From positions 1 through 63,089 of the forward strand of contig JAMFSA010000013.1 of NCBI GenBank assembly GCA_026225055.1: a stretch of DNA of 63,089 nucleotides. The letters are read 5' to 3'. Below the pieces are notes generated by a model, which saw only the letters and a list, made by a program, of their open reading frames with translations, was not told the DNA's origin and searched no databases. Every line of letters starts with the position of its first letter. Positions within the stretch are counted from its first letter, which is position 1. Position numbers and translations under genes: made by a program. This DNA is from Mucilaginibacter xinganensis (GTDB taxonomy: Bacteria; Bacteroidota; Bacteroidia; Sphingobacteriales; Sphingobacteriaceae). Positions 7,702 through 10,700 of the stretch are shown here, in pieces.

Positions 7702-10700
7702 CTACATATTCCGCCTATACTGCCCGCCAACCTCATATAAAGCATGCGATATTTGCCCTAATGAGCAATACTTACAAGCTTCCATCAGGCTCTCAAAAAT
7801 ATTGTCGCCGGCAATGGCTTTGGTTTGGAGTTCCTTTAGCAGTTGCGGTACAATAGCTTCGTTGCGTTGCTGAAAAACTTGCAGGGTGCTGATCTGATAT
7901 TGTTTTTCCTCCTCAGTAGCGCGAATCACCTCACCGGGTGTAATAGTTGGTGAACCTTTTTTGTTGAGGAAAGTGTTAACGCCTACAATAGGGTATTCGC
8001 CGCTATGTTTAAGGGTTTCATAGTAAAGCGATTCCTCTTGTATCTTACTACGCTGGTACATGGTTTCCATAGCGCCCAATACTCCGCCGCGGTCATTTAT
8101 CGCTTTAAATTCGGTCATTACGGCTTCTTCAACCAGATCGGTTAGCTCTTCAATTATGAAAGAGCCTTGTAGCGGGTTCTCATTTTTTGCCAGTCCCAGT
8201 TCACGGTTGATGATGAGCTGTATAGCCATAGCCCTGCGTACAGATTCTTCAGTAGGGGTGGTGATGGCCTCATCATAAGCATTGGTGTGCAATGAGTTGC
8301 AGTTATCATAAATAGCATACAAAGCCTGCAATGTGGTGCGGATATCATTGAAATCTATCTCCTGCGCATGCAGCGACCTGCCGCTGGTTTGGATATGATA
8401 CTTCAATTTCTGTGAGCGGTCGTTCCCCTTATATTTGTTCTTAATCGCCTTGGCCCAGATCCTGCGCGCAACCCGGCCGATCACGGAATATTCCGGATCG
8501 ATACCATTAGAGAAAAAGAACGATAGGTTTGGCGCGAAATCATCAATATGCATGCCCCTGCTCAGATAATACTCTACATAAGTAAAGCCGTTCGATAATG
8601 TAAACGCCAACTGTGTGATAGGGTTAGCCCCGGCTTCTGCAATGTGATAGCCGGAGATGGATACCGAGTAAAAATTCCTTACCTTTTCCTTTATAAAATA
8701 TTGCTGTATATCGCCCATCATCCGCAGTGCGAATTCGGTACTGAAGATGCAGGTATTCTGCGCCTGGTCTTCTTTTAAAATATCAGCTTGCACCGTGCCG
8801 CGCACCGTAGCTATAGCATAAGCTTTAATTTTTGTGTAGATATCAGCTGGCAGCACCTGGTCACCGGTCAGGCCGAGGAGCGTCAGGCCGAGGCCATCGT
8901 TACCGACGGGAAGAGCTGCCTCACCTAAATCCTCTCCAAAGGAGAGGACTTGAGCTTCATTGTTTAGCTCCCTCTCCTTTGGAGAGGAGGGTTGGGGTGA
9001 GGCCTCTAAAATATTTCTGTTAGGCTGATTATCTAATTTATTCTTAATCGATTGCATTACTTTTTGTGTATTAGCAATGACATCTTCATTTGAGAATCTT
9101 ATCACCTCAAAGCCTTCATCATTCAGAACCAGAGTTCTTAAATCATCCTGCTCTTTTGTTAATTCATGATAACCGCCATCAACTTCAATAACTAACCCCT
9201 TGCTTAAGCAAACAAAATCAGCAATATATCCATCTATGGCATGCTGTCTCCTTATTTTATAGCCGATTTGATTATTTCTTAATAATTGCCATAAAATATG
9301 CTCAGCTTCAGTAAGGTTTTGCCTGTTCGCTCTTGAATTGGTTTTTAATGTTTCCCATAAAGCACTATTGGCAGTTGCATACCCAAAGGTTCTTACCCCT
9401 GCTTTATTAGAAGATTGTATAGTGGAATTCTCAAAGTCCCTCTCCTTTGGAGAGGGATTTAGGGTGAGGCGATACTTCGGCCTTTCCAATCCTCGGTCAT
9501 CATACACCTCCCTAAACTTCTCCTCCACCAAATGTTCCAAATGATGCTCCTTTATGTATTTCTCACATTGCTGATCTATCGCCACATTCATAAAAAAGCC
9601 AAGTAGCATAGGGGCAGGGCCATTGATGGTCATGCTTACAGATGTTGATGCATGGCAGAGGTCGAAGCCCGAATACAATTTCTTGGCATCATCCAAAGTT
9701 GCTATACTTACTCCCGCGTTGCCAATCTTGCCGTAAATATCCGGACGGACATGCGGGTCCTCACCATATAAAGTAACCGAATCAAAAGCGGTACTCAACC
9801 TGTGCGCCGGTTGACCGAGTGATACATAATGGAAACGCTTATTGGTGCGCTCCGGTCCGCCTTCACCGGCAAACATGCGGGTAGGGTCTTCTGTATCCCG
9901 CTTTAGCGGAAATACGCCTGCTGTGTACGGAAACTCTCCCGGTACATTCTCTGTAAGCAACCAGCGTAAAATATCGCCCCAGGCTTCGTACTTTGGCAAT
10001 GCAATTTTAGGGATCTGCAATTGCGATAATGAAGTGTAGAACAGCGGCTGTTTTATCTCTTTATCACGTACTTTATATATGAAGTTCTCCGCTTTATATT
10101 TCCGTACCGCATCCGGCCATTCATTCAGTAACCGCTTGCAATCAGGGTGCAGGTGGTTTTCTAAATGAGTATAAATCTCCCGTAGAGACGCAATATTTTG
10201 CGTCTCCTGTTTTGGATGTTTCCCGTTAGGAGACGCAAAGTATTGCGTCTCTACAGTATCATTCCCCTCTTGAGAGGACTTAGCTGTGTGTTTCTCCAAC
10301 AGCTCAATCGTTCCCTTTAAATTATATAGCTGCATCGCCACCCTACACTGCTCATCCACCCATTCGGCATAGGCTTTACTATTCTCGGCAATCTCCGCTA
10401 AATATCGTATTCTGTCTGGTGGGATGATATAACTTTTTTCGGCGGCGGGAGACGCAAAATATTGCGTCTCTACGTGAGAAGAATCAATCAAACCAATCCC
10501 TGTCTTCACTTGAATAACACCAACCAGCGCTGTAAACAATTCATTCATCCCTGGGTCATTAAACTGCGATGCCATGGTGCCAAATATGGGCAGCTCATCA
10601 TCCTTGGCTGTGAACAACTGGTGATTGCGCTTATACTGTTTGCGTACATCGCGTATAGCATCCAGCGCGCCACGCTTATCGAATTTGTTTATAGCCACTA

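What the first reader, a model, noticed from the sequence alone, without database searches (positions are those of the whole stretch)
8918..9470. DUF559 nuclease element inserted in frame inside the mutase domain of IcmF
About 186 residues lie between RPKYR and GNDGLGL, sequences adjacent in other IcmFs. The insert has related inverted ends and a full set of nuclease motifs (ADF, IEVDGGYH), no stop codon and no own start codon. It is a protein-embedded nuclease that is not an intein. It may protect the element by tying it to a metabolic enzyme, or act on DNA from inside the mutase.
Basis: partly seen in the sequence, partly recalled or inferred. Interest (0 to 1): 0.93.

Follow-up and report, generated by a model that had tools for sequence, protein, structure and literature searches.

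The report
Unspliced homing-like nuclease inside enzymes
In a Mucilaginibacter bacterium, the gene of a metabolic enzyme carries, within its own reading frame, a palindrome-ended DNA element that encodes a predicted DNA-cutting domain; relatives of this domain sit inside about 20 kinds of bacterial proteins, at recurring spots in several of them, and these elements likely spread by cutting and overwriting empty gene copies, probably without ever being spliced out.

Summary
Confirmed and extended. The 1340-aa IcmF frame holds a DUF559 nuclease domain that splits its mutase domain. Not an assembly error: of 149 genomes of the genus, 95 match this part of IcmF; of 92 with a readable site, 30 carry the nuclease at this spot, 19 another insert (16 palindrome-only), 43 are empty. 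Not an ancestral domain: presence needs 23 changes on the host tree, shuffled mean 25.5. The nuclease is under purifying selection (dN/dS about 0.12) and resembles homing endonuclease I-Bth0305I by profile and fold. Related domains lie in frame in LeuRS (two sites), MetH, TruB, MiaB, RecG, PheT and others; of the 80 best loci kept from named genomes, 73 lie in IcmF, LeuRS or TruB frames. No intein or intron match. Best reading: a mobile, homing-like nuclease element living in frame and unspliced in housekeeping enzymes. Cleavage, homing and lack of splicing are inferred; no co-conversion tract was found.

The parts
7702..11724 (-). icmF host gene (fused isobutyryl-CoA mutase/GTPase), 1340 aa, interrupted in frame
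8918..9470 (-). whole inserted element, 553 bp from inverted end to inverted end
   Evidence: same site occupied in 30 of 92 readable genomes
9034..9348 (-). DUF559 (PF04480) Vsr-like nuclease domain; positions of the conserved D, E, D, H: IcmF residues 836, 847, 849, 853
   Evidence: fold and profile
9437..9470 (-). coding-left end: GCCTCACCCTAAAT followed by the hairpin CCCTCTCCAAAGGAGAGGG
8918..9003 (-). coding-right end: a complete 86-nt palindromic mini-element, one long hairpin
25634..25716 (+). intergenic palindromic mini-element of the same kind (83% identical to the element's right part)

Best explanation
Window 8918-9470 is a 553-bp element with GCCTCACC inverted ends and a DUF559 nuclease domain, lying in frame inside icmF, which likely spreads by homing: the predicted nuclease would cut the empty icmF allele, repair from the occupied allele would copy the element in, and the translated insert is predicted to stay, unspliced, as an extra domain of a working mutase. 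Shown by calls or sequence: the open frame, the ends, the same site occupied in 30 of 92 readable genomes of the genus, patchy presence, conflict of nuclease and host trees, purifying selection on nuclease and host, resemblance to a homing endonuclease, related domains in about 20 kinds of proteins. Inferred: cleavage of the empty site, repair-driven copying, lack of splicing, and that the hairpin ends allow occasional jumps to new genes and leave palindrome-only derivatives. The element would persist because loss by anything but an in-frame event breaks the host enzyme.
For: Fixed site with empty, filled and remnant states. Nuclease presence changes 23 times on a host tree of 92 rows, shuffled mean 25.5, as low in 71 of 500. 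Nuclease data reject the host tree (AU p 0.005) and both host halves reject the nuclease tree by 438 and 218 log units. G107/G062: host distance 0.041, nuclease 0.322; fourfold sites z 4.6. Nuclease dN/dS median 0.12, maximum 0.16 in 21 usable pairs. Host dN/dS 0.046 among occupied, 0.038 among empty pairs. Frame intact in 30 of 31 nuclease-bearing copies. Tree of 210 nuclease cores: 28 changes of host-site label, shuffled mean 113.5, none of 200 as low, with a few jumps. Homing endonuclease I-Bth0305I (3r3p): profile E 1.1e-4, fold E 1.8e-3, TM 0.68 by target length.
Against: No cleavage, homing or splicing test exists. Windowed identity in the five genome pairs examined (three both occupied, two occupied/empty) showed no clear co-conversion tract. 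The two host halves also reject each other's trees (102 and 156 log units), and pairwise nuclease and host distances correlate almost as well (r 0.55) as the two host halves do (r 0.59), so part of the signal is vertical or model error. The palindrome-only state is more clustered on the host tree than chance (13 changes, mean 17.5, 0 of 500 as low). The host tree is of IcmF itself, not of the species. No target-site duplication is visible. Only 4 of 435 pairs have a nuclease significantly younger than the host at fourfold sites, about what chance would give; 21 have an older one.
Confidence: 0.6

Rival explanations
1. A REPIN/MITE-like transposon: the DUF559 nuclease would move its hairpin ends to many places, and only in-frame landings at tolerant loops survive; recurrence at one site then reflects how few tolerant sites exist, not homing.
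For: Palindrome-only mini-elements at the same site (16 of 92) and between genes; intergenic copies with the same ends in G074 and G077; jumps between genes and between two sites of one gene.
Against: Nuclease lineages are bound to host sites, which repeated random landing would not give; the same two LeuRS sites recur in several orders; no target-site duplication seen.
Confidence: 0.22
2. One old insertion in icmF inherited by descent, with repeated precise loss or replacement by empty alleles; the nuclease is no longer mobile.
For: IcmF-type nucleases fall mostly together (6 changes for 89 rows); nuclease and host distances correlate (r 0.55); remnants G098 and G149 show that in-frame deletion happens.
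Against: 43 empty sites, most without scar; tree conflict; pairs with near-equal hosts but very different nucleases; persistent purifying selection on the nuclease.
Confidence: 0.09
3. A domain kept for the host: the nuclease serves repair, defence or regulation and is merely carried in these enzymes.
For: Purifying selection on the nuclease; many hosts act on tRNA or DNA.
Against: Absent from 43 of 92 IcmFs of the same genus; unrelated hosts; no PADLOC match for the insert.
Confidence: 0.05
4. An unrecognised intein-like or intron-like element that is removed after all.
For: Sits at fixed sites in conserved enzymes as inteins do; nuclease resembles an intron-encoded one.
Against: No intein family among the Pfam and NCBIfam hits at E 0.01; no intron in Rfam (three weak hits, none an intron, all far below threshold). 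The end peptides come from different reading frames of one palindrome in different genomes (SLTPALSKGEG, ASPQPSPKERE), unlike conserved splice blocks.
Confidence: 0.04

Closest known systems
Rickettsia palindromic elements (RPE), protein-coding palindromes
   Same: Palindromic mobile DNA found in frame inside conserved protein genes and also between genes; the host protein is translated with the insert (passages of PMC2229807).
   Different: RPEs are 105-146 bp, as those passages give it, and no nuclease is mentioned there; here a 110-residue nuclease lies between the palindromic ends and is under purifying selection.
Homing endonuclease genes of the EDxHD / Vsr-like group (I-Bth0305I)
   Same: Related catalytic domain; fixed insertion site, empty and filled alleles, patchy distribution.
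   Different: Known ones lie in introns or inteins or stand alone (passages of PMC3943268); here the reading frame is part of the host protein with no splicing signature. Cleavage untested.
Inteins with homing endonucleases
   Same: Nuclease domain in frame inside conserved enzymes at fixed sites.
   Different: No intein (Hint) family match; ends are DNA palindromes whose peptides vary.
REPIN/RAYT systems
   Same: Hairpin ends, non-autonomous palindrome-only copies beside copies with an enzyme (search listings only).
   Different: The enzyme here is DUF559, not a tyrosine transposase; copies lie in coding sequence.
In-frame endonuclease frame at the end of mitochondrial atp6 in Allomyces (recalled, from no call; one search did not retrieve it)
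   Same: An endonuclease frame joined in frame to a host gene without an intron.
   Different: As I recall it, one case at a gene's end; not internal, not palindrome-ended, not a family over many genes.

Membership tests
DUF559 / Vsr-like nuclease (PF04480) | sequence match above the curated cut-off | tested here: met
   110 bits vs 20.6
DUF559 / Vsr-like nuclease (PF04480) | conserved catalytic-type residues | tested here: met
   D, E, D, H invariant in 19 rows over several hosts; D and H replaced in single rows (L083, L092)
Homing endonuclease element | fold/sequence relation to a known homing endonuclease | tested here: met
   3r3p; distant (18% identity)
Homing endonuclease element | same site empty and filled in relatives | tested here: met
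   30 nuclease, 43 empty of 92
Homing endonuclease element | horizontal movement of the element | tested here: inconclusive
   tree conflict and near-random presence, but host halves conflict too and no co-conversion tract
Homing endonuclease element | cleaves the empty allele | not testable with these tools
   needs biochemistry
Intein | Hint splicing domain | tested here: not met
   no such family at E 0.01 in Pfam or NCBIfam
Group I or II intron | catalytic intron RNA structure | tested here: not met
   no intron family at E 1 in Rfam over window 7400-12000
Protein-coding palindromic element (RPE type) | palindrome inserted in frame in conserved genes | tested here: met
Protein-coding palindromic element (RPE type) | short element without an enzyme | tested here: not met
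   553 bp with a nuclease; palindrome-only copies at the same site do meet it
REPIN/RAYT | tyrosine (Y1) transposase in the full-length element | tested here: not met
   the insert's only Pfam matches are DUF559 and the related MTES_1575; RAYT genes elsewhere in the genome were not sought
MITE/transposon | terminal inverted repeats | tested here: met
   at least 8 of 10 end bases matching in 22 of 30 sites
MITE/transposon | target-site duplication | tested here: inconclusive
   none seen by eye in the flanks; no formal test

The most novel reading that the evidence does not exclude
A new class of mobile element, widespread in Bacteroidota: non-splicing coding homing elements, whose Vsr-like nuclease lives permanently as an extra domain inside housekeeping and essential enzymes (LeuRS, PheT, an IleRS-like synthetase, MetH, TruB, RecG, IcmF), invades empty alleles, now and then jumps to new genes by its hairpin ends, and decays to palindrome-only scars that the host goes on translating.
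Probability: 0.5. Interest if true: 0.95.

Novelty: new variant of a known kind. Interest (0 to 1): 0.9.

Why it matters
Homing endonucleases are held to sit inside conserved coding sequence by virtue of a splicing partner (PMC3943268, passages). These elements appear to do it by being tolerated in translation, in essential enzymes, many times over. That would add a lifestyle beside introns and inteins, explain many odd DUF559-containing LeuRS, MetH and mutase annotations, and give natural examples of a whole domain inserted into an enzyme. With empty, filled and remnant states in one genus, the icmF site makes the question directly testable.

Tried and rejected
Assembly or contamination artefact: rejected by 29 further genomes, although this genome has 5.2% estimated contamination. 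Ancestral mutase domain: rejected. Intein and intron: no match. Defence gene: no PADLOC match for the insert. Model of the mutase with its insert: pLDDT 46.8, not used. A pattern count of the ends in the own genome found one place, because I had fixed the spacing too rigidly; the BLAST search (23 matches, several at the same place) served instead. Co-conversion tract: five genome pairs, none clear. Target-site duplication: none seen by eye.

Literature, all in an open-access library: DUF559: 14 papers, all listed; 15 of 16 listed; 11 of 11; 15 of 44,080, mostly off the subject; 10 of 303; 12 of 26; 8 of 12; none; 10 of 72. I saw titles and starts of abstracts; none of those shown describes nucleases embedded unspliced in host proteins, but most of the hits were not shown. 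Of PMC2229807 and PMC3943268 I saw passages.

Rows left out or judged: of the 95 genomes, G130 and G163 (contig ends) and G076 (frame broken inside the element) are not among the 92. G170 is counted as 'other insert' though its insert looks unrelated; G098 and G149 look like nuclease deletions; so 16 of the 19 are palindrome-only. G003 and G165 are counted empty though their LTPTLPPG / FTPALPPG may be scars. My pattern missed the left end in 6 of 30 sites. For the dN/dS median, 414 of 435 pairs were left out because dS lay outside 0.05-2 or was saturated. The 210 rows come from 249 hits after removing duplicates and short cores. Hosts were assigned by motifs that I recalled; family scans were run for window IcmF and 14 others; L231, L233, L234 and L236 and the LeuRS, MetH and TruB loci were not scanned. 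One of the 14 strongest phylum hits (G305) was not looked at. HisF, R-M and PheT copies are more distant (about 32-47% identity) and may be separate lineages. One search also listed an aminotransferase (3rq1, E 0.005), taken as chance.

Full report
WHAT IS THERE. The frame 7702-11724 (-) codes for 1340 residues. It is IcmF, the fused isobutyryl-CoA mutase/GTPase, by an NCBIfam equivalog model above its cut-off and by its match to the solved IcmF 4xc6. Residues 793-897 match DUF559 (PF04480) and lie between two stretches of the mutase domain. In the close relative G026, which lacks the insert, the spot reads RPYYDSELPAGNDGLGL; here it reads RPKY, then the insert, then LPVGNDGLGL. In the alignment to 4xc6 only 5 residues stand against 232 here, so part of the surrounding loop is also absent there.

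ELEMENT ANATOMY. In coding sense it starts GCCTCACCCTAAATCCCTCTCCAAAGGAGAGGGA and ends with the inverse of GCCTCACCTAAATCCTCTCCAAAGGAGAGGACTT. In 30 occupied icmF sites of the genus my pattern found the left end in 24 and the right end in 30, and in 22 at least 8 of the first 10 bases of the two ends agree. The coding-right 86 nt (8918-9003) form one long hairpin, a complete mini-element. The same palindrome is translated in different frames in different genomes (SLTPALSKGEG, ASPQPSPKERE, LSFGEDLGEA), so the end peptides are not conserved as protein, whereas the nuclease is. The AlphaFold model of the insert (mean pLDDT 70.3) has a confident nuclease core (about residues 43-152 of 197) and low-confidence ends.

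OCCUPANCY. Of 149 genomes of the genus, 95 have a match to this part of IcmF. In 92 genomes the site could be read: 43 empty, 30 with the nuclease (this one included), 19 with another insert. Of the 19, 16 are palindrome-only; G098 keeps RGYETADPALW and G149 keeps SQPDRQ, scraps of the nuclease's borders, so they look like in-frame deletions; G170 looks unrelated. A 31st nuclease copy, in G076, has a broken frame at the element's far end. So 30 of 31 nuclease copies keep the host frame open, at different lengths.

MOBILITY. On a tree of the host protein (92 rows, site left out) the nuclease needs 23 changes, against 25.5 for shuffled labels (as low in 71 of 500): presence is almost unrelated to descent. 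The palindrome-only state is clustered (13 changes against 17.5, 0 of 500 as low) and the empty state slightly so (26 against 30.7, 21 of 500). Among the 30 occupied genomes the nuclease data reject the host tree (AU p 0.005), and the host halves reject the nuclease tree by 438 and 218 log units. Against this, the two host halves reject each other too, by 102 and 156 units, and nuclease and host distances correlate (r 0.55) nearly as well as the host halves do (r 0.59), so part of the history is shared. G107 and G062 have nearly the same host (distance 0.041) but very different nucleases (0.322). At fourfold sites, of 435 pairs 21 have a nuclease significantly more divergent than the host and 4 less (z 2.6; pairs are not independent). 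G102/G103 show host dS 0.27 and nuclease dS 0.03, but the step in identity along the DNA is small, and none of five pairs shows a clear co-conversion tract.

SELECTION. The nuclease has dN/dS median 0.12 and maximum 0.16 over the 21 of 435 pairs with usable dS. Host dN/dS has a median of 0.046 among occupied pairs (36), 0.038 among empty pairs (90) and 0.043 between them (129). Both the nuclease and the interrupted enzyme are therefore under constraint.

MANY HOSTS. The nuclease as query hit 88 of 149 genomes of the genus at E 1e-15, and the hits fell into groups by frame length that proved to be IcmF, leucyl-tRNA synthetase (LeuRS), TruB (at its end), a Lhr-type helicase and HisF (at its start). 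A protein search with this domain among proteins of about 737-2345 aa gave 706 hits, 120 listed, including IcmF, LeuRS, methionine synthase MetH, MiaB and a Upf1-like helicase. A second search (13 hits) added an MnmC-like methyltransferase, an acyl-CoA synthetase and a glycosyltransferase. Of these 133 proteins, 15 carry two inserts: LeuRS at two sites, MetH at two of three sites, the Upf1-like helicase. Over 148 genomes of the phylum 63 had a match at E 1e-8, and the 14 strongest outside this genome all lay in frames of 425-1484 aa; 13 of these were looked at: LeuRS (5), RecG (2), MetH (2), HsdM, a type ISP and an Eco57I-type R-M enzyme, and an M23 peptidase. Weaker hits lay in HsdR, a DNA methylase and PheT. 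From the genome collection with names, two peptide patterns gave 216 relatives, of which the best 80 were kept: 21 in IcmF, 48 in LeuRS (29 at site 1, 15 at site 2, 4 unclear), 4 in TruB, 4 others (a LeuRS-like frame that ends soon after the insert, an IleRS-like synthetase, a type ISP enzyme, one unknown), and 3 in frames under 230 aa. In all I count about 20 kinds of host protein; the more distant ones may be separate lineages.

SITE LINEAGES AND JUMPS. A tree of 210 nuclease cores needs 28 changes of host-site label (least possible 15; shuffled mean 113.5; none of 200 as low). TruB, Lhr, Upf1-like, acyl-CoA synthetase and glycosyltransferase copies each form one group. Jumps: one MiaB copy inside an IcmF group, another MiaB and the MnmC-like copy beside or inside LeuRS site 2, LeuRS site 1 intermixed with IcmF, and the two copies of one LeuRS (P0002) as sisters (126 columns, many forks open, quick model). 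In Mucilaginibacter paludis (G090/P0039) LeuRS site 1 holds a nuclease 73% identical to ours. Two copies near ours (G074, G077) lie between genes with the same kind of ends; both frames stop before the right end, and G074 has its own ATG, G077 none ahead of the core.

MECHANISM. The nuclease resembles I-Bth0305I, a homing endonuclease (profile E 1.1e-4; fold E 1.8e-3); the nearest solved structure is an uncharacterised endonuclease-like protein, 3hrl. Fixed site, empty and filled alleles, rapid turnover, site-bound lineages and purifying selection together are what homing would leave. Cutting of the empty allele and repair from the filled one are inferred. That the insert is not spliced is inferred from the lack of an intein or intron match and from frame maintenance. 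The hairpin ends would account for occasional jumps and palindrome-only remains; how they do so is not known.

NOVELTY. Protein-coding palindromes are known from Rickettsia (PMC2229807, passages) and homing endonucleases with splicing partners are well known (PMC3943268, passages). I saw no paper that joins the two in the searches (open-access library, listings only, several cut short). I rate it a new variant, a hybrid of two known kinds, that would deserve a class of its own if homing and non-splicing were shown.

Noticed in passing
10184-10209, 10229-10254, 10448-10473: IcmF of this genome also holds three in-frame copies of a different palindrome (GAGACGCAA..TTGCGTCTC, read as ETQYFASP or ETQNIAS), another palindrome translated inside the same enzyme.
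   Followed up: partly
32526-32927 (-): A stand-alone DUF559 frame of 134 aa, distant from the insert (about 36% identity), with a weak PADLOC match to a methyl-directed restriction enzyme model (E 1.1e-5).
   Followed up: partly
L062, LeuRS ahead of its nuclease insert: This LeuRS has a palindrome-only in-frame insert (EASPKSSPKERTSN...LSPGEGLGEA) at the place where other LeuRSs carry the nuclease (site 1), besides the nuclease at site 2.
   Followed up: partly
L192 (G076; contig length as for Mucilaginibacter ginsenosidivorans protein P0038): icmF whose frame is broken at the far end of the element, giving frames of 924 and 422 aa: a possible cost of carrying the element.
   Followed up: no
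P0112, P0114 (Flavobacterium MetH): Methionine synthase with two nuclease inserts at two sites; the copies of both proteins form one group, site 1 and site 2 as sister pairs.
   Followed up: partly
L225, L228, L229, L230, L232, L314: Restriction-modification enzymes are frequent hosts of more distant embedded DUF559 domains with palindrome-like flanks; whether these are the same kind of element is open.
   Followed up: no
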